Assembly: GCA_003142635.1 (NCBI GenBank)
Contig: PLMX01000246.1
Location: 26,819 to 62,094 of the forward strand
Length of the DNA stretch: 35,276 bases
Origin: Syntrophaceae bacterium
GTDB lineage: Bacteria; Desulfobacterota; Syntrophia; Syntrophales; UBA2185
Reading direction: 5' to 3'
Shown here in pieces: positions 1-33,297 of the stretch. Made by a program: the position numbers and the translations under genes. The notes below the pieces were generated by a model. It made no database searches. It was not told the origin of the DNA and saw nothing but the letters and a program-made list of their open reading frames with translations. Position 1 is the stretch's first letter, and every line of letters starts with the position of its first letter.

Positions 1-339
1 CAGCGCCACAACAGCAGCTATCGCTACAGTAAACTTGGAGGAAAGACTCCTTTGAAGGCCCTTGCCGCCTCGAATGCGAAACTACGGTTTCCTGCAAAAG
101 ATGAAGCCCCGATGCACCGGATAAAAAAGCCAGAGATCGGTAGATATCATGTTGTGAGACTTATCCGTAGCGATCTGAAACTCAACATCTTCGGAGAATG
201 CTTCTCGGCTCCGCCGGAGAGGAATTTGATTACAAATTGCGTTAAAAAACAGGTGAGTGTTCACGATGTCATGGCACTCAACAATTATTCATTTACAATG
301 AGAGTGACGATATGCGCAACTTGGGGGGGGAGTCGATGA
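1..339 (+). mobile_element. C-terminal fragment of an IS481-like (integrase-core) transposase
   Basis: The frame is open from the first base, so the gene begins outside the window. Residues encoded by about 1-220 match the tail I know from IS481-like transposases: an 'RYSKLGGKTPLKAL' block, then 'KLRFP', then 'GRYHVVRLIRSDLKLNIFGE' followed by 'PPE'. After about 220 the reading frame loses the family pattern ('ERNLITNC'), while the next frame briefly reads 'EEFDYKLR' and stops, which suggests a one-base slip in a decaying copy. The last bases overlap the start of the next gene. No terminal inverted repeat or target-site duplication could be identified. It is read as a remnant rather than an active element. 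Assignment to this transposase class is from recalled motifs, not from a search. Confidence 0.7.
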
Positions 340-1698
340 AAGAATACGATGTCATCGTCATAGGTGCAGGTACGGGACTGGGTATCGCATTTAAGGCACA
401 GGCCAGCAAACTGAAAGTTGCTCTAATCGACAAAGGAAGTGTTGGTGGAACCTGCGTTAATGTCGGTTGCGTCCCCTCCAAAATACTGATTTATCATGCC
501 GACAGGATCACCGACATAGAAGAGGCGAAAAAGCTGGGCATTGACGCGAAGGTAAAGCGGATAAATTTTCGCGCCATCATGGACCGCATGAAGGCTACCA
601 TAGACGAGAGCCGCACATGGATGGAAAATGAGATCGCAAACTCGAAAGGACTGGATTTCTACAACGAGGAAGCGCGGTTTGTCGATGCTTACACACTGAA
701 AGTCGGTAAAGAGACTATGAAAGGCCGGAAGATTTTCATTGCCGCCGGCCGCCCGTGCCCTCATACCGCCTGTCAAAGGTCGAAGTAAGATCGCTTATCT
801 GACCAATGAGAATCTGCTCGCCCTCCGGGAACAGCCGGAAAGTATCATCATCATCGGCGGCGGCTATATCGGAGTCGAATACGCCCACTTCTTTGCGGCC
901 ATGTGAACCAGGGTAACCGTGGTCCAGAGACAAAACAGACTCCTTGCCAATGAAGAACCGGAGATAGCGGACCATCTTAAGGAAGAGCTCTCAAAGCGCA
1001 TGGAAATTCTGACCAATTGGGAAACTGTGGAAGTCTGGGAGAAGAAGGGGCTCTACACAGTGATCTTGAAGAATCTTGAAACCGGCTATGACAAGGCAAT
1101 CAGCGGCGCAAAGGTGCTCGTCGCCGCAGGACGTGTATCCAACGCGGACCTGTTGGATGTACATAAGACAGGGGTAGAGACTAATGAAGCCAACTATATC
1201 AGGGTGGCCGATACGCTCCTGACGAGCAAGAAGAATATCGGGGCTATAGGCGACGCTATCGGGCGCCAAAGGTTCACGCACGCCGGCGACATGATGCAGC
1301 GCGTGGCCTGGCGTAACGCCACAAGCCGCAAAGAAGTGTCTTTCGATTTTAGTCTCGTTCCCCACGCCGTCTTTACGCATCCGCAGATCGCCTCGCTCGG
1401 CCTCACGGAAGAGCAAGCAGCTAAGAACCATGATATTCTTGTAGGCCGTGCAAATTATTCCGACGTGGTGATGGGGGATGCCATGATGGAAAGCGAAAGT
1501 TTCGCCAAGGCAATCGTGGAAAAAAAGACGGAGAAGATTCTCGGCTTTCACATCATCGGACCGGAAGCGGCCATTCTCATCCAGAAGGTCGTGAATGCCG
1601 TGGCCCGCGGGTGGGACGCGAAATCAATAACGGACAATATGCATATTTTTCCGGCACTCTCTGAAATCATTCCTGAAACATTGAACAACCTGGAATGA
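336..1698 (+). pseudogene. Mercuric reductase / dihydrolipoyl dehydrogenase-family flavoprotein, interrupted by a frameshift and an in-frame UGA
   Basis: This is a class I pyridine-nucleotide disulfide oxidoreductase of about 454 codons, full length for the family. The chosen ATG at 336 follows a G-rich ribosome site. It has an N-terminal FAD motif (GAGTG, residues 10-14), the redox pair Cys40/Cys45 in 'GGTCVNVGCVPSK', an NAD-binding 'IIIIGGGYIG', a second FAD motif ('IGAIGDAIG') and a C-terminal dimerisation domain ending 'MHIFPALSE', where the usual second His is Phe. Two lesions break it. An extra C near 749-750 shifts the frame: removing it restores 'AAGARALIPPVKG'. A UGA at 904-906 sits where relatives have Gly ('FFAAMG'), one base from GGA. 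That UGA is not at a redox site and I see no well-placed SECIS hairpin, so selenocysteine is unlikely there. Two lesions suggest decay or assembly errors. It lies 20 bp upstream of a MerP-like gene. Confidence 0.8.
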
Positions 1699-21740: not shown

Positions 21741-23093
21741 ATGATGGAAGAGTACACCTCACCGTTGAACATCCTGATTGTCGATGACGAGCTGAATATT
21801 CGCAAGACCCTCTCCGTCTGCCTCGAGGTGGAGGGACACAAGGTTGTCGCGGTCAGCAATTACGAGGATGCCCTTTCTGAAAACGCCCGCCGTTCCTTTG
21901 ATGCCGCTTTCGTTGATCTCCGCCTCGGGACAAAAAGCGGTCTGGACCTCATCCCGGCGCTTCTTTCCAGTTCCCCTTGGCTGAAGATAATCGTCATCAC
22001 GGCCTATGCATCTATCGATACGGCGGTAGAGGCGATGAAGAGGGGCGCTGCCGATTATATTCCGAAACCATTCACACCTTCCCAGGTAAAACTCTGTGTC
22101 GATAAAGTTGCAGAGGTCCGTTCGCTGGAGCAGCGTGTGGATGCCCTTCAGGCGGATTTGAACCGCATCAATCCCGAAGTGGATCTCAGCACGGCGAGTA
22201 CCGTCATGCAGCGGACTATCGGACAGGCAAGGCAGGTGGCCTCGACAGACGCTATTGTCTTGCTTACGGGAGAGAATGGAACCGGAAAAAGCGTTCTTGC
22301 CCGGGCAATCCACGGGTGGAGCAAACGGGCAAACAAACCTTTCGCCGAGATATCATGCCCTGCTCTTTCCGCGGAGCTTCTCGAAAGCGAACTTTTCGGA
22401 CACGTGAAAGGGGCCTTTACAGGCGCCGTGCGGGACCATTTGGGCCGTATCGCCTTCTGTGAGGGAGGCACGCTGTTCCTGGATGAGATAGGCGATCTGC
22501 CGCTCTCCGTTCAACCGAAACTCTTGAGGTTTATCCAGGAAAGGGAATACGAACGTCTCGGCGATCATATGACCCGGAAGGCGGATGTTCGTCTGATTGC
22601 GGCGACCAACATGGACATCGAGGAGGCCGTCCGAAATAATCGTTTCCGCGAAGACCTCTTCTACCGGCTGAATGTTATCCAGATAGAGATCCCGCCGCTC
22701 CGGGAGCGGCCTGATGATATTGCCAACCTCTCCAGACGATTGCTCATCTTCTTCGGGAGAAGCCATCACTGTGCTCATCAGCGCTTCAGCGACGAGGCGC
22801 TGCAGGCGCTCCGCCGCTATTCCTGGCCGGGAAATGTGCGCGAGCTGCGAAATGTCATCGAACGAGCGTCCATACTATGTAAGTCAGAGTTAGTAGGAGT
22901 CGAATTTCTGCCGGAAAAGCTAATTCCTGCCGAAGACTGTCCCAAGCCCGGAGATTTTGTTTCTCTCGATAAAGTGGAAGAGATGCACATCCGGCGCGTC
23001 CTTGCTTCTGCCAAATCATTGCAGGAAGCCGCCGATATTCTCGGAGTCGATCAGGCAACCCTCTGGCGACGCCGGAAACGCTATGGAATCTGA
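21741..23093 (+). CDS. NtrC-family sigma-54 activator (REC-AAA-Fis), probable regulator of kdp
   Basis: The protein has 450 residues. Residues 10-125 are a receiver domain with the acidic pair 'VDDE', phosphoacceptor Asp59 in 'AAFVDLRLG' and conserved Lys in 'IPKPF'. Residues about 150-380 are a sigma-54-interacting AAA domain. Its Walker A reads G-E-N-G-T-G-K-S (commonly G-E-S-G-T-G-K-E), the sigma-54 contact loop GAFTGA is intact, and Walker B 'GGTLFLDEIGDL' is present. The C-terminus (about 420-450) is a Fis-type helix-turn-helix ('LQEAADILGVDQATLWRRRK'). It activates sigma-54 RNA polymerase when phosphorylated. The gene sits directly before two palindromes, a -24/-12 promoter and the sensor kinase gene that begins the kdp operon, replacing the usual OmpR-type KdpE. 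Confidence 0.93.
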   Translation: MMEEYTSPLNILIVDDELNIRKTLSVCLEVEGHKVVAVSNYEDALSENARRSFDAAFVDLRLGTKSGLDLIPALLSSSPWLKIIVITAYASIDTAVEAMKRGAADYIPKPFTPSQVKLCVDKVAEVRSLEQRVDALQADLNRINPEVDLSTASTVMQRTIGQARQVASTDAIVLLTGENGTGKSVLARAIHGWSKRANKPFAEISCPALSAELLESELFGHVKGAFTGAVRDHLGRIAFCEGGTLFLDEIGDLPLSVQPKLLRFIQEREYERLGDHMTRKADVRLIAATNMDIEEAVRNNRFREDLFYRLNVIQIEIPPLRERPDDIANLSRRLLIFFGRSHHCAHQRFSDEALQALRRYSWPGNVRELRNVIERASILCKSELVGVEFLPEKLIPAEDCPKPGDFVSLDKVEEMHIRRVLASAKSLQEAADILGVDQATLWRRRKRYGI

Positions 23094-23225: not shown

Positions 23226-23242
23226 TTGGCACAACGGTTGCT
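23226..23242 (+). promoter_or_regulatory. Sigma-54 (-24/-12) promoter of the kinase-kdp operon
   Basis: TTGGCACAACGGTTGCT matches the known consensus YTGGCACG-N4-TTGCW in every invariant base, with GG at 23228-23229 and GC at 23240-23241 in exact spacing. The predicted transcription start is near 23252, 19 bp before the kinase ATG at 23271. It lies just downstream of the gene for a sigma-54 activator and two phased palindromes. Confidence 0.85.
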
Positions 23243-23270: not shown

Positions 23271-25127
23271 ATGTTTAGCTTAAGACAGAAGTTGTTTCTT
23301 GGATTCGGCGGCCTGTTGCTTATCATCGCATTGACCGGCATTCAGAGCATCAGTAAGGTCACAGAATTGGGCGATGCAATCGATGTCATTCTCAGAGAGA
23401 ATTATCGAAGCGTGCTCGCCTGTCAGAACATGAAAGAATCCCTCGAAAGAATGGACAGCGGGGCGCTTTTTATCCTCTCCGGTTATGAAAAGGAGGGTAG
23501 GGAAGCCATTGACGGAAACCTACCGGTGTTTGAGAAGGCGCTCACGATCGAATTGAATAACATCACTGTCCCGGGCGAAGGCGAGAAGGCCGCCCACCTC
23601 AGCGAACTTTTTGCAAAATATAAGGCCACGATCCAAGGCATGGAAGACCGAAATGTCCCGCGTGAAACGCGGCGGGACATTTATTTCAATGAACTGTTTC
23701 CCTTGTTTCGGGATATAAAGGGAACGGCGGATGCGATCCTTAATATGAACCAGCAGAATATGTATGACGCTAATCAAGCTGCGCGCCATAAAGCGACTAA
23801 GGCGCGTGAGCAAATGTATTTTCTCCTGATTCTCGGCGCTGTCTTGGCCATCGCCTATGTATTCCTCATAGGCAAATGGATACTCCGCCCGATTGAACGT
23901 CTGACGCAGTCCGCTGAGGAGATCAAACGGGGTAATCTGGATCTCATAGTTAAGACCGATACCCGTGATGAAATAGGGCGACTTTCAGAGGCATTCAATG
24001 CGATGGCTGCAAGTCTTCGGGAAGTCCGCCGCAGCGATGAAGCAAAGCTTGTCAGGATTCAGCACTCGACACAGCAGACATTCGACAATCTTCCGGATGC
24101 CGTGGCAATTCTGGACCTGGAGGGAAAGGTGGAGACGGCAACGGAAACAGCCGGAAACATCTTTGGACTGAAGCGCAATATCCAGATTGAAAGCGTACCC
24201 TTTAAATGGATAACCGATCTATACAGAAATGCCCTTAAGGGAGATCACGCCTCTGCGAAAGAAGACGCGACGGCTGTCGTGCAGCATTTCGTCAACGCGG
24301 AGGAGCATTTCTTCCGGCCGACGACCGCTCCTATCCTGAATAATAAGAGGGAACTCATCGGCATAATCCTTATCCTCAAGGACGTAACAGATAAGCTGGA
24401 GCAAGACGAACTAAAGAAAGGCGTCATTTCCACGGTCTCACATCAGTTGAAAACACCTCTTACTTCCATTCGCATGGCTATTCATCTCCTCCTCGATGAA
24501 AAGATCGGACCCCTCACTCCCAAGCAGCAGGAACTCTTGATTGCGGCACGGGAAGACAGCGAGCGCCTTCAGAAGATCCTCGTTAATCTGCTTGATATCA
24601 GCCGTATAGTATCCGGTAAAATGGCTATGGAGTTTCATGCGATACCGCCCCAGCAAATCATCTCGGAGACTGTTGAATCTTTCCGGGGAGCGGCACTCGG
24701 CCACGGTGTGAAAATTCACACACTGCTGCCCGGTGACCTGCCCGAGGTCCGGGCTGATAGGATGCGGATCGGGCATGTTTTCGCCAACCTATTGTCTAAT
24801 GCCCTGAGGTACACCGCATCCGGTGACACAGTGACCGTAACCGCACAGGCTGGTGAAGAACAGGTTGAGTTCTCCGTTTCGGATACCGGTAGGGGAATAC
24901 CCGAACAGTATCTCTCCAGGATCTTCGATCCATTCTTTCGTGTGCCTGGCCAGGAAGCTGATACAGGCACCGGCCTGGGACTTTCCATAGTCAAAGAAAT
25001 TGTCGAGGCACATGGCGGGTCAGTCAGTGTAAAAAGCCGCGTGGGTGAAGGGACCACAATCTCTTTCACCCTTCCGAAATACACGGGAGAAGCCAATTCG
25101 CATAAGAATGACGAAAAGAAACTATAG
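23271..25127 (+). CDS. Membrane sensor histidine kinase (periplasmic helical sensor-HAMP-PAS-HisKA-HATPase)
   Basis: The protein has 618 residues; the ATG at 23271 has an AGGAG site. The first membrane segment spans about residues 7-27 and is followed by a mainly helical periplasmic domain (30-180). The second spans 182-204, with a HAMP linker to about 257 ('PIERLTQSAEEIKRGNLDL') and a PAS-like domain to about 375 ('FDNLPDAVAILDLEGKVETA'). Then come HisKA with phosphoacceptor His391 in 'VSHQLKTPL', and the ATPase with N box 'ANLLSNALRYT', G1 'DTGRGIP' and G2 'GTGLGLSIVKEIV'. It is the probable partner of the upstream sigma-54 activator. It lacks the KdpD sensor domains; that sensor is encoded separately at the operon's end. 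The signal sensed is unknown. Confidence 0.92.
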   Translation: MFSLRQKLFLGFGGLLLIIALTGIQSISKVTELGDAIDVILRENYRSVLACQNMKESLERMDSGALFILSGYEKEGREAIDGNLPVFEKALTIELNNITVPGEGEKAAHLSELFAKYKATIQGMEDRNVPRETRRDIYFNELFPLFRDIKGTADAILNMNQQNMYDANQAARHKATKAREQMYFLLILGAVLAIAYVFLIGKWILRPIERLTQSAEEIKRGNLDLIVKTDTRDEIGRLSEAFNAMAASLREVRRSDEAKLVRIQHSTQQTFDNLPDAVAILDLEGKVETATETAGNIFGLKRNIQIESVPFKWITDLYRNALKGDHASAKEDATAVVQHFVNAEEHFFRPTTAPILNNKRELIGIILILKDVTDKLEQDELKKGVISTVSHQLKTPLTSIRMAIHLLLDEKIGPLTPKQQELLIAAREDSERLQKILVNLLDISRIVSGKMAMEFHAIPPQQIISETVESFRGAALGHGVKIHTLLPGDLPEVRADRMRIGHVFANLLSNALRYTASGDTVTVTAQAGEEQVEFSVSDTGRGIPEQYLSRIFDPFFRVPGQEADTGTGLGLSIVKEIVEAHGGSVSVKSRVGEGTTISFTLPKYTGEANSHKNDEKKL

Positions 25128-25379: not shown

Positions 25380-27209
25380 ATGTTTATTCAAACCTGGTTT
25401 CTTCCCTTTTTGCTTCTTGCAACGGCGACTGTCATTGCGTTTCCCTTAAGTCGCTACATGGCGTGGATCATGGATGGGAAATACCGACCGTTGCCGGTCT
25501 TTCGCTGGTTCGAGGAACACTTGGACAGCGGCCCACAAAACTGGAAGCAGTATACATGTTCTCTGCTCATTTTCAACACGATACTGTTCATTTTCGGTTT
25601 CCTCATCCTCGCGCTCCAGCCGTGGATGCCTCTCAATCCGGATAGTAAGACGATGCTGGCCCCAAGCACCATCTTTAACAGCGTGGTGTCATTCATGACA
25701 AACACGAACCTTCAGCACTATGCCGGAGACCAGCACCTGACGAACTTCAGCCAGATTTTCTTTTGCATCGCCAACATGTTTCTGTCCGCTGCAATCGGTC
25801 TCTGTGCGCTGACTGCGATCATCCGTGCTTTTCGGAGCTCCTCAACGTTAGGCAACTTCTTCGTTGACATGTGGCGGGTGCTTGTTTACATGTTCGTACC
25901 GGCTGCCTTTATCATCGGTCTTATTTTTATAACGCAGGGCAGTCCGATGACTTTTCAAACTTCCCACAGCCTTTCGACGCTTGAGCCTGCGGCGATGGGG
26001 ACAACGGACACGGGTGAAGCAAAGCAGCAAACCATCGTTGTCGGGCCAGTGGCGGCCCTCGAGTCCATCAAGATGCTCGGTACCAACGGCGGCGGGTTTT
26101 ACGGCATGAACTCCGCCCACCCTTTCGAGAATCCCACCGGGCTGTCGAACTTTTTTAACGCACTGTCCATGATGTTGTTCCCGTTTGCCCTTGTACTCAT
26201 GTACGGACGGATGCTTCGCAAGTTCCGGCACAGCCTTGTCATTTTTTCTGTCATGCTGGTATTAATGACGGGCACCATTATTTGGGCGGTCTACTTTGAT
26301 ACGCTGAAACCGAACCCGACATTGACCAGCCATCCTGTGGCAAAAACTTACGCGATTGCGAGCGCAGTGGCGCCGGGAGGGAAAACGGTTGTGTCCACGC
26401 CGGCGGTTGCGGGCTTGCCGGTAGACCAGCATCTGGGCAACCTCGAAGGCAAGGAGATGCGCTTCGGCGTATCCGCAGGCGCCACTTTCGCGGCACTGAC
26501 GACAGACGTTACATGCGGCGCGGTGAACGCCGAGTCCGACAGCCTCAACCCGATTGCCGCCCTTTCGCCCATGGTGGGAATGTGGCTGAATTGCGTCTTC
26601 GGCGGCAAGGGCGTGGGCATGGTCAACATGCTGCTCTACTTAATCATCGGGATATTTGTGGCAGGCATGATGGTGGGCCGGACGCCCGAGTATCTGGGCA
26701 AGAAAATCGAGGCCCGTGAGGTGAAGCTCGCGATCATCGCCCTGCTCGTACATCCCTTCATGATACTCATGCCCACGGGACTTTTCGCCGCTACGGACTG
26801 GGGACTAAAAGCGGTAAGTAATCCCGGCGCCCACGGTTTTTCACAGATTCTGTACCAATTCTCTTCGGCCTCTGCCAATAACGGCTCAGCCTTTGATGGA
26901 TTGGGAGTTACCTATGGTTTCTGGAATGCTGCAAACCCCGCGCCGGAGGCGATCGCCTGGGATATTGCAGCGGGACTGGTGATGCTCTTCAGCCGCTTTC
27001 TTCCGATCATCGCGCCCATCGCCATGGCGGCATATCTCGGAGCGAAGAAATCAAGCCCGTTCGGTCTGGGCACCTTGCGCGATGACAGCGTCACCTTTGG
27101 GTTTCTCTTGTTGGGGACGATTGTCATCATAGGCGCTTTGCTCTTTCTTCCGGTCGCCGCACTCGGACCGGTGGCGGAACACCTGGGTCCCATTCCTTTC
27201 GGCGGCTGA
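25380..27209 (+). CDS. kdpA: KdpA, potassium-selective channel-like subunit of KdpFABC
   Basis: The protein has 609 residues, about 50 longer than the E. coli subunit. The extra part includes the segment around residues 310-345 ('VAKTYAIASAVAPGG', 'VVSTPAVAGLP'). About ten membrane helices are present. The four selectivity loops are all recognisable: 'TNTNLQHYAGDQHLTNFSQ', 'GTNGGGFYGMNSAHPFENPT', 'TTDVTCGAVNAESDSLNP' and 'SASANNGSAFDGL'. 'MVGRTPEYLGKKIEAREVKL' is a further family signature. It takes up potassium from the periplasm with high affinity and passes it to KdpB. The ATG at 25380 follows AAAGGAG. Confidence 0.96.
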   Translation: MFIQTWFLPFLLLATATVIAFPLSRYMAWIMDGKYRPLPVFRWFEEHLDSGPQNWKQYTCSLLIFNTILFIFGFLILALQPWMPLNPDSKTMLAPSTIFNSVVSFMTNTNLQHYAGDQHLTNFSQIFFCIANMFLSAAIGLCALTAIIRAFRSSSTLGNFFVDMWRVLVYMFVPAAFIIGLIFITQGSPMTFQTSHSLSTLEPAAMGTTDTGEAKQQTIVVGPVAALESIKMLGTNGGGFYGMNSAHPFENPTGLSNFFNALSMMLFPFALVLMYGRMLRKFRHSLVIFSVMLVLMTGTIIWAVYFDTLKPNPTLTSHPVAKTYAIASAVAPGGKTVVSTPAVAGLPVDQHLGNLEGKEMRFGVSAGATFAALTTDVTCGAVNAESDSLNPIAALSPMVGMWLNCVFGGKGVGMVNMLLYLIIGIFVAGMMVGRTPEYLGKKIEAREVKLAIIALLVHPFMILMPTGLFAATDWGLKAVSNPGAHGFSQILYQFSSASANNGSAFDGLGVTYGFWNAANPAPEAIAWDIAAGLVMLFSRFLPIIAPIAMAAYLGAKKSSPFGLGTLRDDSVTFGFLLLGTIVIIGALLFLPVAALGPVAEHLGPIPFGG

Positions 27210-27270
27210 CCGCCAATAAAGGCCTTATAAACTCGTTACCATGAATTGTAGAACGAATGAGGAGTTGGAT

Positions 27271-29418
27271 ATGAATAACGTTCCCGATATTACAGAACCC
27301 GTTCAAAAGGCGCCGTCGCAGCGGCCGCTTCGCCGGGTAAAACCAAGGGGGCTCCTGGAGAAGGAAACAGCGAAGGCGGCATTGAAACAGTCGTTTGTAA
27401 TGCTGAGGCCGGACATACAATGGAAGAACCCCGTAATGTTCGTGGTTGAGGTAGGCGCGATCCTGACTCTGTTATATATCGTGCAGGCAGCGTGGGGAGG
27501 GGCAGCGAGCCAGGAACCGATTACATATTTTATTGCCCTTGACGCATGGCTTTTTCTGACCGTGCTGTTCGCGAACTTTGCCACCGCTCTGGCTGAGGCC
27601 CGCGGCAGAGCCCAGGCCGATTCACTCAGGAAGGCGCGGCATGATACGCCAGCCTATCGCTTAAACGCAGCCGGCGCCATCGAAGAAGTTTCCTCTGCGG
27701 TTTTGAAAGCAGGGGATCGTGTGGTCGTGCAGGCAGGCCAGACAATACCGGGCGATGGCGAAATAATTGAAGGGATTGCGTCCGTAGACGAGTCGGCGAT
27801 AACCGGTGAATCGGCGCCCGTCATTCGCGCTGCGGGCGGTGACCGGTCAGGCGTGACCGGCGGCACCGTCGTGCTTTCCGACCGGATCGTCGTTCTGATC
27901 ACCAGCGGTAGCGGTGATTCGTTTCTTGACCGGATGATAGCGCTCGTAGAAGGCGCCATCCGTCAGCGAAGCCCGAATGAAATTGCTCTCACGCTGCTGC
28001 TATCCGCCTTCACTCTGGTGTTCCTTATCGTGGTGATCCCTCTTTGGCCGATGGCCTGGAATGCCGAGCAGTACATGATGGGCTACCTGGGCATTCAACA
28101 GCCTTTGAAAAGTCTCGGCACTGATATACCGACCCTCATCGCGCTCCTGGTCTGTTTGATTCCTACGACCATCGGCGCTCTGCTTGCCGCTATCGGGATC
28201 GCGGGCATGGACCGCGCTCTGCAGGCCAATATTATTGCGAAAAGCGGCAAGGCGGTGGAGTTGGCTGGTGACATTGATGTCGTGTTGCTGGACAAGACCG
28301 GCACGATCACCATCGGGAACCGGAATGCGACAACATTCCTGCCCATAGGAAATAATTTGGCCGCCGATGTCGGACAGCTTGCTGCCCTGGCTTCTGCCGC
28401 CGATGAAACGCCAGAGGGAAAAAGCATCGTGAGATTGTTTGAAAAGCAAAACCAGACGGTTACTGCGCCGCAGGACAGTAAGTTTGTACCATTCACCGCA
28501 CAAACACGCATGAGTGGTATTGATTTTCCTGACGGGCGGCGGATACGAAAAGGCGCGCCCGACGCCGTCATCAAATTTGTCGAGGACAATCGTGGCAGCA
28601 TCCCCGCTGATCTTAATTCATTAATTAGCAGTGTTGCGGCCAAAGGCGCAACTCCCCTCGTCGTTGCTGATGGCAACCAGATTGCGGGGCTAATCGTTCT
28701 GGAGGACATTTTGAAACCCCACATGCATGAACGCTTCGAGCGGCTGAGAAGGATGGGGCTTCGGACAGTAATGATCACAGGAGATAACCCCCTGACGGCT
28801 GCTTACATTGCCAGACAGGCTGGAGTCGATGACTTTCTCGCCGAAGCAACGCCGGAGACCAAGCTCGCTTACATCCGGAAGGAGCAGGCGGGTGGAAAGC
28901 TGGTGGCCATGATGGGCGACGGAACAAACGATGCGCCGGCCCTGGCCCAGGCGGATGTAGCCCTTGCCATGAACGCCGGCACGCAGGCAGCCAAGGAAGC
29001 TGCTAACATGGTCGATCTGGACAGCGACCCTACCAAGCTGATCGAAGTTGTGGAAATCGGAAAGCAGCTCCTCATAACACGAGGTTCATTGACGACCTTC
29101 TCCATCGCCAACGACGTGGCGAAATACTTTGCGATCATCCCCGCACTTTTTGCGGGGACTCTGCCGTGGCTCGGGGTGATGGACATTATGCATTTGCATT
29201 CACCTACCTCGGCCATTCTGTCGGCTGTCATCTTCAACGCCCTCATCATTCCGGCGCTGATACCGGTGGCGCTGAAGGGAGTAAAATACCGGCCTCTCGG
29301 CGCCGATGCCCTATTGCGCAGGAATCTGCTGATTTGGGGACTCGGAGGCGTCATTTTGCCGTTTATTGGCATCAAACTAATCGACCTTATCCTGGTTAGT
29401 TTGCATTTAGTTAACTGA
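27271..29418 (+). CDS. kdpB: KdpB, P-type ATPase catalytic subunit of KdpFABC
   Basis: The protein has 715 residues. The ATG at 27271 is chosen because GAGGAG lies just before it, rather than an earlier in-frame ATG at 27241. The phosphorylated Asp lies in '[11 protein letters not shown]'. The actuator loop '[12 protein letters not shown]' holds the TGES motif, whose Ser is the site of inhibitory phosphorylation in E. coli. '[20 protein letters not shown]' is the hinge motif. A long N-terminal cytosolic extension ('[20 protein letters not shown]') precedes the first helix. It hydrolyses ATP to drive potassium import with KdpA. It lies 61 bp after kdpA and 27 bp before kdpC. Confidence 0.96.
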
Positions 29419-29445
29419 GATTTCAGAGATCAAGGAGACATAAAT

Positions 29446-30459
29446 ATGTCACGATATCTTTCTAAGAGCCTGCTACTGCTCTTATTCTCTGTAGTCATCT
29501 GCTGCGTCCTCTACCCGCTCGTGCTATGGGTAACCGGACAGACGCTCTTCAACTTTCAGGCTAACGGCAGCATACTGCTTGGTCCCGACGGAAAGCCCGT
29601 GGGATCACGACTTATTGCCCAGCCTTTCACCAAGGACGAATACTTTCAGCCTCGCCCCTCCGCAGCGTCATATGATGCATCCGCCTCGGCCTCATCGAGC
29701 CTGGCTGCATCCAATTATGCGTTGCGGGACCGGGTTGCCCGTTCGCTTGGGCCCATCATAAAATACCGGAGCGGCCCTAAGACCGGTCAACCAGTGTCGC
29801 CGGATATCGAGAGTTGGTTTAAGAAAGATATGTACCAGGGCAGCCCGCACATTGTCGCGCAGTGGGCGGATCAACATAACTCTCTTGCTCAAGCCTGGGT
29901 TACGTCAGATCCAACGCACGCAGCATACGTGGACGATTGGGCGAAGGCACGTCCGGATCTCGTAAAAAAGTGGATCAAGGAAAATCCGGGCACCCCGCAG
30001 CCAAAAGCGGCGGATCTTGCTGTGGTGTTTTTTAAAAATTTCTCCGAGAAAAACCCCGGTAAATTTCTCTCTGCTGTCACTCACAAGGGAGCCGATGGGA
30101 AGGATCAAGCGACATTGCAACCTGTCAATGAGGGCTCGGATATTCAATCGACCTTTTGTCTCATGTGGCGAGAGGAGCATCCTGACGTTGATCTCGAAAA
30201 TGTCCCCGGAGATATGGTGATGTCATCCGCTTCCGGGCTCGATCCTCACATCACGTTTCAGAATGCCGAGTATCAGCTTGACAGGGTTGCCTCCAAATGG
30301 GCAACCAATTTGAAACGCAATCCCGACGATGTGCGAAAGGAGATTGGGCAGATTTTACGGGATAACGCCTCGGCCCCGTGGGGCGGACTCGCCGGTGAAA
30401 AGTTCGTGAATGTTCTTGAAGTCAACCTCGCACTACGCAAACGCTACGGCGCACCTTAA
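29446..30459 (+). CDS. kdpC: KdpC with a large internal insertion
   Basis: The protein has 337 residues against about 190 for the canonical subunit. Residues 1-104 carry the normal N-terminal helix and 'QANGSILLG', 'GSRLIAQPFT', 'YFQPRPSAASYD', 'LAASNYALRDRV'. Residues about 253-337 carry the normal end ('SSASGLDPHIT', 'NVLEVNLALRKRYG'). Between them lie about 150 residues that E. coli KdpC lacks. They are rich in Trp and Pro: 'ESWFKKDMYQGSPHIVAQWA', 'AQAWVTSDPTHAAYVDDWA', 'KKWIKENPGTPQP'. Three similar Trp-Ala/Pro units suggest an internal repeat. KdpC is periplasmic and sits over the KdpA pore, so the insert would be an outer-face domain. The ATG at 29446 follows AAGGAG. Confidence 0.93.
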   Translation: MSRYLSKSLLLLLFSVVICCVLYPLVLWVTGQTLFNFQANGSILLGPDGKPVGSRLIAQPFTKDEYFQPRPSAASYDASASASSSLAASNYALRDRVARSLGPIIKYRSGPKTGQPVSPDIESWFKKDMYQGSPHIVAQWADQHNSLAQAWVTSDPTHAAYVDDWAKARPDLVKKWIKENPGTPQPKAADLAVVFFKNFSEKNPGKFLSAVTHKGADGKDQATLQPVNEGSDIQSTFCLMWREEHPDVDLENVPGDMVMSSASGLDPHITFQNAEYQLDRVASKWATNLKRNPDDVRKEIGQILRDNASAPWGGLAGEKFVNVLEVNLALRKRYGAP

Positions 30460-30488: not shown

Positions 30489-30534
30489 GTTCTGACATAT
30501 GAACCTCTCAAAAATGAAATCAGGAGTAATTGTG

Positions 30535-31479
30535 ATGAAAGGATACATCTTCGTGAGAAATGCTTTCTTAAGTGCGATTGTGACGCTGTTCTTGCTGACA
30601 GTGGGTGTGACTTCCATCTTGGCTGAGGATCAGAAACCTGCTGCAGCGACTCCCGCCCCTGCAACAGAGGCTGCTGCTCCGGCTGCGCCTGCGGAAGATA
30701 AACCCACCGGTTCGTTAGCCATTTCCGGTTTGTCAAAATATGTATGGCGTGGATATGAAAACACCAAGAACAGCGTTGTAGTTCAACCCTCCCTGACAGT
30801 TGGCTATAAAGGGTTTAGCGCCAATATATGGGGAAACCTTGATACAAAGCCCTACTCGACAACAAACTCCAGTTATTCCAGCGCCTGGACGGAAACGGAT
30901 CTCACTCTTTCTTATACTAAAACTTTTGGTATTTTAAACGCCGGTCTTGGCTACATCTATTATGGTCTGGGAGCGCCAAATGCCGGTGCAGCAAAACCGC
31001 TTGATTCACAGGAAATATTTGTCACTCTCGGTCTTAATACGCTCCTCACGCCGACTTTAACGGCCTATAAGGAAATTGATCATTATCACCAGTATTATTT
31101 CCTGTTGGGGATTTCCCATACTTTTGAATTCAACAAAACCGTTTCGCTGGCATTGAGCGCATCCGCGAGCTACTTGCTCAGTGACTATGCCGATGCGACC
31201 CTCTATGGTGTTAATGCATCGTATGGCGGGTATCCAAAGTTCAATGATAATTATCAGGCGACAAACGACAAATTCAGTAATTTCCACGACGGCGTGCTCA
31301 CGGCGAGCCTCCCCATAAGTGTGGCAAAATATTTGACCGTGGCCCCGACCATATCCTACTCATTCCCTCTATCTGACGATGCAAAAAATGAGATTAAGGC
31401 CAGAGGCAAATTGACCAATCCGGGCGAGAACGACAGCAGTTACCTTTACGGCGGCCTGACCGTTACCTTAAGCTTCTAA
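30535..31479 (+). CDS. Outer-membrane beta-barrel protein (TorF/Gcw_chp-like putative porin) inside the kdp operon
   Basis: The protein has 314 residues. The ATG at 30535 is preferred for its CAGGAG site; an in-frame ATG at 30499 lacks one. A signal peptide ends near 'TSILAED' and is followed by an Ala/Pro-rich linker ('AAATPAPATEAAAPAAPAED'). The remainder has alternating beta-strand patterns ('GLSKYVWRGYENTKNSVVVQ', 'LTVGYKGFSANIWGN', 'TLSYTKTFGILNAGLGYIYY') and ends in Phe ('GGLTVTLSF'), the signature of outer-membrane barrels. The opening 'YVWRGYE....VVQPSLTVGY' resembles the TorF/Gcw_chp family of putative porins. Sitting between kdpC and the KdpD-like gene, it may let potassium cross the outer membrane; that is inference. 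Confidence 0.75.
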   Translation: MKGYIFVRNAFLSAIVTLFLLTVGVTSILAEDQKPAAATPAPATEAAAPAAPAEDKPTGSLAISGLSKYVWRGYENTKNSVVVQPSLTVGYKGFSANIWGNLDTKPYSTTNSSYSSAWTETDLTLSYTKTFGILNAGLGYIYYGLGAPNAGAAKPLDSQEIFVTLGLNTLLTPTLTAYKEIDHYHQYYFLLGISHTFEFNKTVSLALSASASYLLSDYADATLYGVNASYGGYPKFNDNYQATNDKFSNFHDGVLTASLPISVAKYLTVAPTISYSFPLSDDAKNEIKARGKLTNPGENDSSYLYGGLTVTLSF

Positions 31480-31617: not shown

Positions 31618-33297
31618 ATGCCTGTTGAAAATCGAGCAGATGCTTTCTTGAGGATGATCCGCAGGTCCCAGCGCGGCCACCTGAAGATATACCTTGGTTA
31701 TGCCGCCGGCGTGGGGAAGACCTACCGGATGCTCCAGGAAGCGCATCAACTCAAGAATGAAGGGATCGACGTGGCCGTGGGACTAGTCGAGACGCACGGC
31801 CGGGTCGATGTCGCCAAACTTCTTGAAGGGCTGGAGATGATCCCGAGGCGGAGACAGGAATATCGCGGGATTATCCTTGAGGAGATGGACGTTGATGCCA
31901 TTCTGGCCCGGAAGCCTCAGATTGTACTCGTCGACGAACTGGCGCACACCAACGTGCCGGGCAGCCACAATGCAAAAAGGTACCAGGATGTCCAGGATAT
32001 ACTCGCGAAGGGGATTCACGTCATCAGCACCCTGAACATCCAGCATCTGGAAAGCCTCTATGACGTCGTAGAGAAGGCATCCGGTGTCAGGGTCCATGAA
32101 CGCCTTCCGGATGCCGTCCTCGTTGAAGCGGACCAGATCGTGAATGTTGATTTGACCACAGAGGACCTCAGTGAACGTCTTAAAGAAGGAAAAATATATC
32201 CTCCCGAACGCATCGAGACGGCGCTCGCAAATTTCTTCAAGAAATCGAACCTGGAGCAGCTTCGGGAGCTTACCTTGCGTGAACTCGCTTCACAGATTGA
32301 CCAGCGATCCCGTGATAAGCTGGAAGAGGAGGTTCCGGCTACTCCCGATCAGGTGATGGTGTGTCTAAGTTCAAAAGGTCAGAACAGCGAAAAACTGCTC
32401 CGTTACGCTTCGCGCTTGGCCGGACGGCTTAATAGAAACTGGTACGCCGTCTATGTTCAGACGCCGTCAGAGGCGCCGACCTCCATTGATGCGCAGACGC
32501 AGCGCATTCTTTCAGGAACACTAACGCTTGCAAAGCAGCTCGGGGCAATCGTCTTCACCTTCAAGGGAGAAGATATCGTCAAGACCATTCTTCAGTTTGC
32601 CAGGGAATACAGGGTCGGTCACATTGTGATCGGGAGCCCGAGAAAAATTCCTTTCTGGAAGCAGATGATGGGCGAACGCAGTGTCGCCGAACGCCTGATC
32701 CGCGATGCGAGGGGCGTGACGGTCGTTGTACTTGACACGCAGAAATCCGATGTGGCTTCTCCTCCGGCGGTTGAGGAAGAGATCATACAGGAGGAGAATG
32801 CCCCTGCAGCGCGCGAAGCGGAAGACGCTCGCACACGTTTAACGGAATTCATATCCGAAGACAGGATTATCATCTGGGAGGCGCCCATCACAAAAGATGA
32901 TTTGCTGAAAAGCCTCTCAGACGTTGCCTGTGAAGACGGAAGCGAAGATAAATTGAAGGGTCTTAATGCAATCATGGAAAGAGAAAAACAAGGCTCGACA
33001 TTCTTCAACGAAGGCGTGGCCTTTCCCCATGCGAGGATCGAGGGACTCAAACGCTCATGCGTGGCCATCGGTTTGACACACGGCGGTCTTTCCGACGTGG
33101 CGACGGAAAAGCCCATCGAATCTGTTTTTTTGATTTTTTCACCGGCGGATCTTCCCGACGAACAGATCCAGATACTGGCACTTGTCAGCAAGGCCGCCCT
33201 CGACAGGCAGCTTATGGATACGTTGCGATCGGCGAGAAACCCCGGCGAGGGCTATCAAGCCATTCGGGCATGGGAAATTGCGGAGCAAACCGGATAA
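31618..33297 (+). CDS. KdpD sensor domain-Usp-PTS EIIA fusion protein without a kinase domain
   Basis: The protein has 559 residues. Residues 20-230 are the KdpD N-terminal domain: Walker A 'GYAAGVGKT' (27-35), 'GLVETHGR', 'VLVDELAHTNVPGS' and 'KRYQDVQDILAKGIHVISTL'. Residues about 245-375 are a universal-stress (Usp) domain ending 'HIVIGSPRKIPFWKQMMGERSVAERLIRDARG' (a nucleotide-binding end; family pattern G-x-P). Residues about 395-555 are a fructose/nitrogen-type PTS EIIA domain with the phosphorylatable His471 in 'VAFPHARIEG'. The four-helix membrane region, GAF and histidine-kinase parts of KdpD are absent. In E. coli, EIIA-Ntr binds KdpD and changes kdp expression, so this fusion joins two known partners in one chain. 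It probably signals to the operon's separate kinase or to the transporter. The start has a weak ribosome site. Confidence 0.9.
   Translation: MPVENRADAFLRMIRRSQRGHLKIYLGYAAGVGKTYRMLQEAHQLKNEGIDVAVGLVETHGRVDVAKLLEGLEMIPRRRQEYRGIILEEMDVDAILARKPQIVLVDELAHTNVPGSHNAKRYQDVQDILAKGIHVISTLNIQHLESLYDVVEKASGVRVHERLPDAVLVEADQIVNVDLTTEDLSERLKEGKIYPPERIETALANFFKKSNLEQLRELTLRELASQIDQRSRDKLEEEVPATPDQVMVCLSSKGQNSEKLLRYASRLAGRLNRNWYAVYVQTPSEAPTSIDAQTQRILSGTLTLAKQLGAIVFTFKGEDIVKTILQFAREYRVGHIVIGSPRKIPFWKQMMGERSVAERLIRDARGVTVVVLDTQKSDVASPPAVEEEIIQEENAPAAREAEDARTRLTEFISEDRIIIWEAPITKDDLLKSLSDVACEDGSEDKLKGLNAIMEREKQGSTFFNEGVAFPHARIEGLKRSCVAIGLTHGGLSDVATEKPIESVFLIFSPADLPDEQIQILALVSKAALDRQLMDTLRSARNPGEGYQAIRAWEIAEQTG

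What the first reader, a model, noticed from the sequence alone, without database searches (positions are those of the whole stretch)
31618..33297. KdpD sensor domain fused to Usp and a PTS EIIA domain, with the kinase moved to a separate protein
EIIA-Ntr is known to bind KdpD in E. coli and modulate kdp. Here an EIIA with intact His471 is covalently part of the KdpD-like chain, while the histidine kinase is a different protein with its own sensor. The fusion could couple PTS phosphorylation state (nitrogen/carbon status) and ATP or second-messenger binding by Usp to potassium uptake.
Basis: partly seen in the sequence, partly recalled or inferred. Interest (0 to 1): 0.65.

Follow-up and report, generated by a model that had tools for sequence, protein, structure and literature searches.

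The report
Potassium-pump serine kinase carrying PTS domain
A Syntrophaceae-like bacterium makes a short KdpD protein, of the type known elsewhere to switch off the potassium pump by phosphorylating it, with a phosphotransferase-system (EIIA) domain permanently attached, which suggests that the cell's energy or nitrogen status directly controls potassium uptake.

Summary
In detail: window 31618-33297 encodes one 559-aa soluble protein, KdpD domain + Usp + EIIA, with the EIIA phospho-site His471 intact, beside kdpABC and a separate histidine kinase. It is no artefact: 34 sampled genomes carry it (32 intact, 2 split), in about 17 family codes of one phylum; His471 is invariant in 34 of 34 aligned rows. 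Having the histidine kinase on another chain is already described (Desulfovibrio, Deinococcus).

A 2024 paper changes the reading: the KdpD N-terminal domain is itself an atypical serine kinase that phosphorylates KdpB and shuts the pump. Its key motifs are here (the adenine-binding Trp is Tyr), and so is the KdpB target TGES. Best reading: a pump-inhibiting serine kinase with a PTS input (EIIA) beside its Usp input, not half a sensor for gene expression. Transcription looks separate: an NtrC-type regulator and a perfect sigma-54 site precede the histidine kinase. The genome has EI, EI-Ntr, HPr, HPr kinase, a stand-alone EIIA-Ntr and CdaA. The fused EIIA has Gln for the second active-site His in 32 of 34, suggesting a sensor rather than a carrier. 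Gating by EIIA is inferred, not shown.

The parts
21741..23093 (+). NtrC-type response regulator (receiver + sigma-54 AAA domain with GAFTGA), 450 aa
   Evidence: NCBIfam hits to AtoC/NtrC families; a homologue lies with the histidine kinase in 16 of 29 fused loci fetched
23227..23242 (+). sigma-54 promoter-like site TGGCACAACGGTTGCT, 28 bases before the histidine kinase start
   Evidence: only match in the window at 0-1 mismatches (0 mismatches; 1.27 expected by chance at up to 1 mismatch); sites of 9 or more of 11 near the same place in 10 of 26 homologous loci
23271..25127 (+). separate sensor histidine kinase (HAMP, PAS, HisKA, HATPase), 618 aa
25258..25338 (+). KdpF-like small membrane peptide, 26 aa
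   Evidence: read by eye; KdpF likeness recalled, not tested
25380..27209 (+). kdpA
   Evidence: PF03814 E 3e-192; TIGR00680 over cut-off
27241..29418 (+). kdpB; serine kinase target motif TGES, Ser191 at 27811-27813
   Evidence: TIGR01497 988.6 bits over cut-off 527.9; TGES at 188-191
29446..30459 (+). kdpC, long form of 337 aa with an insertion
   Evidence: PF02669 in two stretches
30499..31479 (+). porin-like protein inside the operon
   Evidence: TIGR02001 E 7e-5, below its cut-off
31618..33297 (+). KdpD-Usp-EIIA fusion protein, 559 aa
31669..32298 (+). KdpD domain (atypical serine kinase): Walker A G27-x5-G33-K34-T35, Walker B D106-E107, R187
   Evidence: residues present in 29 of 29 alignable fused rows, one further row lacking this part; aligned with E. 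coli KdpD
32353..32715 (+). Usp domain
   Evidence: Z 17.5 with c-di-AMP-bound KdpD Usp 7ji4
32848..33267 (+). PTS EIIA domain (PF00359)
   Evidence: Z 20.6 with EIIA-Ntr 1a6j
33028..33030 (+). codon of His471, the EIIA phospho-acceptor histidine
   Evidence: His in 34 of 34 fused rows

Best explanation
The protein is a soluble pump-inhibiting serine kinase of the short-KdpD type with two stacked inputs. Its KdpD domain phosphorylates KdpB on the Ser of TGES (Ser191 here) and blocks K+ uptake when active. The Usp domain reads a nucleotide, most likely c-di-AMP made by the genome's CdaA. The C-terminal EIIA, on a flexible linker, is phosphorylated on His471 from PEP via EI or EI-Ntr and HPr, and its phosphorylation state raises or lowers the serine kinase activity, tying K+ uptake to PEP/pyruvate and perhaps nitrogen status. 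Transcription is handled separately by the NtrC-type regulator and histidine kinase at a sigma-54 promoter. Shown here: anatomy, conservation, operon, PTS genes, promoter-like site. Established elsewhere for homologues: serine kinase activity, c-di-AMP stimulation of a short KdpD, NtrC-type control of kdp. Inferred: that EIIA is phosphorylated, that it gates the serine kinase, and in which direction.
For: Serine-kinase residues (E. coli G36/K37/T38, D109/E110, R190) are aligned and kept. TGES is present in 29 of 30 kdpB frames read in related loci; the thirtieth is a contig-end fragment lacking that part; the window's KdpB has it too. Homologues: serine kinase on KdpB and c-di-AMP stimulation of a KdpD-Usp protein (PMC11018627). 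The kdpD-EIIA gene follows the pump genes. The pump genes of this species differ from those of a same-genus genome (KdpA 39%, KdpB 58%) while regulator, kinase, KdpD-Usp and EIIA stay 84-96% identical, so the regulators were kept through a pump change. EIIA keeps His471, R455, E456, T461 and P470 in 34 of 34 and forms one branch apart from 35 stand-alone and 13 other EIIA domains (SH-aLRT 97, quick tree). EIIA dN/dS 0.14-0.24 in three same-genus pairs. PTS genes in the genome; convincing HPr in 29 of 34 fusion genomes. EIIA domains also occur on Na+/H+ antiporters and on a c-di-AMP synthase in sampled genomes.
Against: No activity was measured. Five of 34 fusion genomes gave no convincing HPr, and no HPr was found beside EI in the four of them where an EI gene of about 600 aa was inspected. 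The adenine-binding Trp39 of E. coli is Tyr here (Y 22, W 4, C 2, F 1 of 29 alignable fused rows). Unfused short homologues with the same operon type exist, so EIIA is dispensable for the basic function. His120 of EIIA-Ntr is Gln in 32 of 34, so the phosphorylation chemistry may differ. Inter-domain contacts were not resolved (pTM 0.47).
Confidence: 0.5

Rival explanations
1. The EIIA arm acts on transcription: it docks on the operon's separate histidine kinase, as free EIIA-Ntr docks on the HisKA or GAF part of KdpD in other bacteria, and adjusts kdp expression. The fusion is a scaffold that rebuilds a split KdpD. This is closest to the first reader's idea.
For: EIIA-Ntr binds HisKA in E. coli and GAF in Sinorhizobium, in its unphosphorylated form (PMC9239096 passages). 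The kinase gene is in the same neighbourhood.
Against: The same type of kinase sits beside short KdpD proteins without EIIA (L096, L097, L101), so it does not need the arm. The kinase is HAMP-PAS by Pfam, not the GAF/TM kinase of KdpD.
Confidence: 0.22
2. Both outputs: EIIA sets the serine kinase and also bridges to the histidine kinase.
For: As above; E. coli KdpD joins both activities in one chain (PMC11018627).
Against: No direct evidence for either contact.
Confidence: 0.13
3. EIIA is a fossil or structural module, for example for dimerisation or KdpB docking, no longer phosphorylated.
For: Second active-site His replaced by Gln in 32 of 34; five of 34 fusion genomes without convincing HPr; faster evolution than the KdpD and Usp parts; lost in, or never gained by, sister lineages.
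Against: His471 and Arg455 kept in 34 of 34 although EIIA identity to the window's falls to 31%.
Confidence: 0.15

Closest known systems
Short KdpD (KdpD-Usp) atypical serine kinase, e.g. Deinococcus geothermalis KdpD (PMC11018627)
   Same: KdpD + Usp without histidine kinase, behind the pump genes; Walker A/B and R190 equivalents; TGES target
   Different: adds a C-terminal EIIA domain; none of the terms EIIA, PTS, IIA or Desulfo was found in that paper's main text
Desulfovibrio vulgaris kdp operon DVU3334-3339 (PMC3333781; PMC4641369)
   Same: sigma-54-type regulator, separate kinase, KdpD-UspA protein, kdpFABC
   Different: the passage names only a K+ sensor domain and a UspA domain for DVU3336, no EIIA
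EIIA-Ntr (PtsN) acting on KdpD in E. coli and Sinorhizobium (PMC9239096)
   Same: EIIA fold and phospho-His; a link between PTS and kdp
   Different: there a free protein binding the histidine-kinase half; here covalent and on the serine-kinase half; His120 to Gln
S. aureus KdpD Usp domain binding c-di-AMP (PMC8214093)
   Same: fold (7ji4, Z 17.5); C249, S251, N256 fit the motif by position
   Different: second Ser of the motif (S246) is Lys253 here, Arg in most relatives

Membership tests
KdpD-domain atypical serine kinase (short KdpD) | KdpD domain over the curated cut-off | tested here: met
   PF02702 316.4 bits against 26.1
KdpD-domain atypical serine kinase (short KdpD) | Walker A G-x5-GKT and Walker B Asp-Glu | tested here: met
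   G27..G33-K34-T35, D106-E107; present in 29 of 29 alignable fused rows; K, T, D, E in 11 of 11 short rows
KdpD-domain atypical serine kinase (short KdpD) | adenine-binding Trp39/Arg190 pair | tested here: inconclusive
   Arg187 kept in 30 of 30; Trp replaced by Tyr36 here
KdpD-domain atypical serine kinase (short KdpD) | substrate KdpB with TGES | tested here: met
   Ser191
KdpD-domain atypical serine kinase (short KdpD) | phosphorylates KdpB | not testable with these tools
   needs purified proteins
NCBIfam NF038185 KdpD-like non-kinase potassium sensor | score over the curated cut-off | tested here: not met
   369.8 bits against 550; the model covers 373 aa
KdpD sensor histidine kinase | HisKA and HATPase domains on the chain | tested here: not met
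   no such Pfam hit in P0001
PTS EIIA (PF00359) | domain over cut-off with phospho-His | tested here: met
   64.4 bits against 27; His471 in 34 of 34
EIIA-Ntr / PtsN (TIGR01419) | score over the curated cut-off | tested here: not met
   52.6 bits against 138.7; note the genome's own stand-alone EIIA-Ntr also falls short, 124
EIIA-Ntr / PtsN (TIGR01419) | second active-site His (E. coli His120; its role recalled) | tested here: not met
   Gln516; Gln in 32 of 34 fused, His in 32 of 35 stand-alone
c-di-AMP-binding KdpD Usp | motif (A/G/C)xSxSx2N...(Y/F) | tested here: inconclusive
   C249, S251, N256 fit and Tyr279 is nearby; the second Ser is Lys253. The short D. radiodurans KdpD also breaks the motif

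The most novel reading that the evidence does not exclude
A PTS-gated protein serine kinase: phosphorylation of a built-in EIIA by PEP-EI-HPr directly switches a serine kinase that shuts the Kdp pump, with c-di-AMP on the neighbouring Usp as a second key, so that carbon/nitrogen status and K+ status are integrated on one polypeptide. It has been kept across many families of one phylum.
Probability: 0.4. Interest if true: 0.72.

Novelty: new variant of a known kind. Interest (0 to 1): 0.52.

Why it matters
How free EIIA-Ntr controls potassium uptake has been studied as a loose protein-protein contact with the histidine kinase. Here EIIA is welded to the other half of KdpD, the newly recognised serine kinase, in a protein that looks soluble and could be purified. 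That makes a direct test possible of whether the PTS controls pump activity after synthesis, and of how c-di-AMP and PTS signals combine. It also suggests a function for a protein type that scores below the database model for non-kinase KdpD.

Tried and rejected
Rejected: assembly or gene-prediction artefact (same fusion in 34 sampled genomes, and in two further MAG loci, L036 and L037); a degenerate EIIA (catalytic residues invariant; dN/dS 0.14-0.24); a genome without PTS; a novel separation of the histidine kinase (in print). A neighbouring free EIIA beside unfused short KdpD was looked for: no EIIA hit appeared in any of the 11 loci L096-L102 and L104-L107. Association of the fusion with lack of a c-di-AMP synthase: 26 of 30 fusion genomes and 50 of 50 others have a DAC hit; two of the four negatives are incomplete genomes (67% and 82%), so nothing is built on it. 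Single origin: KdpD-Usp trees need 2-3 changes, one clade not rejected (p-AU 0.22). PF02896 does not separate EI from PEP synthase and was used only to find candidates. Fusion outside the phylum: not found among 460 plasmid records with a match (none covering 80% of the query); the single genome-collection scan used patterns from one sequence and found 8 loci, 4 with the fusion, all from records labelled Syntrophaceae, Desulfomonile or delta, so absence elsewhere is not shown. A sigma-54 site before kdpA (2 of 26 loci with 9 or more of 11), the regulator (0 of 19) and kdpD (1 of 40) was not supported.

Papers: PMC11018627 (outline with abstract, section 8, passages); PMC9239096, PMC8214093, PMC4641369, PMC3162934, PMC3333781 (passages only); all others only as search listings. 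Searches in which a KdpD-EIIA fusion might have shown: with 19, 58 and 62 on neighbouring questions; none is apparent in their listings. Only open-licence PMC papers were searched, so 'not described' is limited to that.

Full report
What is there. The frame at 31618-33297 (+) is a single 559-aa protein with a KdpD domain (18-227), a Usp domain (246-366) and a PTS EIIA domain (411-550); it has no HisKA or HATPase domain. A model built from 46 homologues (pLDDT 79, pTM 0.47) shows three folded domains and a low-confidence linker, 377-404, matching KdpD 2r8r, KdpD-Usp 7ji4 and EIIA-Ntr 1a6j. His471 is the phospho-histidine by alignment with 1a6j.

How common. In 100 relatives, 12 genomes have the full fusion. 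In 395 genomes drawn evenly from the phylum, 73 have a KdpD-like match and 21 of these the full fusion; two more have it split over two frames or contigs. G000 is in both samples, so 32 intact plus 2 split genomes, in about 17 family codes. A scan of the genome collection added two further MAG loci, one labelled Desulfomonile tiedjei. The window's own group was identified only through near-identical records labelled Syntrophaceae.

The operon. Order: NtrC-type regulator (21741-23093), histidine kinase (23271-25127), a KdpF-like peptide, kdpA, kdpB, kdpC, a porin-like gene, then kdpD-EIIA. Of 29 fused loci fetched, 16 show both regulator and kinase in the neighbourhood; most of the others end at a contig edge first. 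A perfect sigma-54 site TGGCACAACGGTTGCT lies 28 bases before the kinase; it is the only match in the window. Near the kinase start, 10 of 26 homologous loci have a site matching 9 or more of 11 positions, whereas upstream of the other genes this is 0 of 19 (regulator), 2 of 26 (kdpA) and 1 of 40 (kdpD). In Desulfovibrio vulgaris the regulator DVU3334 was mapped to kdpFABC, with DVU3335/3336 described as a kinase split in two (PMC3333781 passage; sigma-54 listing in PMC4641369). The separation of the kinase is therefore known.

Why a serine kinase. PMC11018627 reports that the KdpD N-terminal domain phosphorylates KdpB Ser162 and inhibits the pump, that short KdpD-Usp forms retain this domain, and that the D. 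geothermalis form is stimulated by c-di-AMP. The residues it lists align here as K34/T35, D106/E107 and R187, with Tyr36 in place of Trp39. KdpB Ser191, the Ser of TGES, is the target by position. So the chain that carries EIIA has its own likely output on the pump.

The EIIA. It keeps the active-site His, Arg455 and neighbouring residues in 34 of 34 fused rows, but has its own signature: STFFNEGVAFPHxR against STGIGDGIAIPHGK in stand-alone proteins, and Gln instead of His at the second active-site position (32 of 34, against His in 32 of 35). It forms one branch apart from 35 stand-alone and 13 other EIIA domains (SH-aLRT 97, quick tree of 157 columns), so it was probably acquired once. The KdpD-Usp tree needs 2-3 changes of the trait, and one clade is not rejected (p-AU 0.22); short sister proteins in the same operon type either lost EIIA or never had it. 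In three same-genus comparisons EIIA evolves faster (dN/dS 0.14, 0.21, 0.24) than the kinase (0.05-0.07) and Usp (0.04-0.06), but is constrained. The Gln would fit a sensor that does not pass its phosphate on; that is inference.

Inputs available. The genome encodes HPr and EI side by side, a GAF-EI (EI-Ntr-like), EIIA-Ntr and HPr kinase in the rpoN cluster, and a CdaA-like protein (EI, HPr and RpoN over at least one curated cut-off, the others below theirs). Among 34 fusion genomes 29 have a convincing HPr; G201, G228, G279, G364 and G452 do not, and no HPr was found beside the EI gene in G201, G228, G279 or G364. These five are the main evidence against a universal phosphorelay. DAC (c-di-AMP synthase) hits are in 26 of 30 fusion genomes and 50 of 50 others. 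The Usp fits three positions of the Firmicutes c-di-AMP motif and fails one; the D. radiodurans short KdpD fails more, so the motif decides little.

Mechanism. Best reading: EIIA phosphorylation gates the serine kinase and hence pump activity; Usp adds a nucleotide input; transcription is governed by the separate two-component system. The rival, that EIIA docks on the separate histidine kinase, rests on E. coli and Sinorhizobium contacts (PMC9239096), but the same kinase type occurs beside EIIA-less short KdpD. The sign of control cannot be told from sequence.

Context. In sampled genomes EIIA domains are also fused to Na+/H+ exchangers (three proteins) and to a DacZ-like c-di-AMP synthase (one), which fits a wider use of EIIA as a covalent input for cation homeostasis.

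Novelty. Serine-kinase KdpD, split kinases and EIIA-KdpD crosstalk are known; the covalent EIIA on the serine-kinase chain was not seen in the literature searched. I rate it a new variant of a known kind.

Noticed in passing
window 25380-30459; L035, L108, L102: The pump genes seem exchanged in place: against a same-genus genome (L035) the regulator, kinase and KdpD-Usp are 90-96% identical but KdpA is 39% and KdpB 58%; KdpB and KdpC are instead 84% and 75% like those of a distant genome (L102) that has a short KdpD without EIIA.
   Followed up: partly
window 29446-30459: KdpC is 337 aa, against about 170-210 in most related loci, with an insertion between the two Pfam stretches; the same long form occurs in L102.
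   Followed up: no
L164 2424-3932: EIIA fused to a DacZ-like diadenylate cyclase (EIIA, DacZ_P, DAC), i.e. a c-di-AMP synthase with a PTS domain.
   Followed up: partly
L157, L163, L165: EIIA domains at the C-terminus of Na+/H+ exchangers, one of them with a TrkA_N domain as well.
   Followed up: no
L151-L156: A conserved protein of about 269 aa, EIIA plus an unassigned C-terminal part, found in six genomes that have short KdpD, away from the kdp loci fetched.
   Followed up: no
L158-L161; L162, L167, L168: EIIA fused to a MerR/HTH_17 DNA-binding domain, and EIIA with a C4 zinc ribbon (Pfam-scanned for L158, L161 and L162 only).
   Followed up: no
L169-L172: EI genes with no HPr next to them in four fusion genomes where no convincing HPr was found; in L169, L171 and L172 the neighbour looks like RsmI (recalled, by eye).
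   Followed up: partly
window 30499-31479: A porin-like gene between kdpC and kdpD-EIIA; a related gene lies beside kdpA in L113.
   Followed up: no
L016, L017, L021, L026: KdpD-Usp proteins of about 680 aa whose C-terminal part was not identified; they branch apart from the fusion clade.
   Followed up: no
window 312-1698: Two frames (312-788 and 919-1698) read like two halves of one pyridine-nucleotide-disulfide oxidoreductase, perhaps a frameshift (by eye).
   Followed up: no
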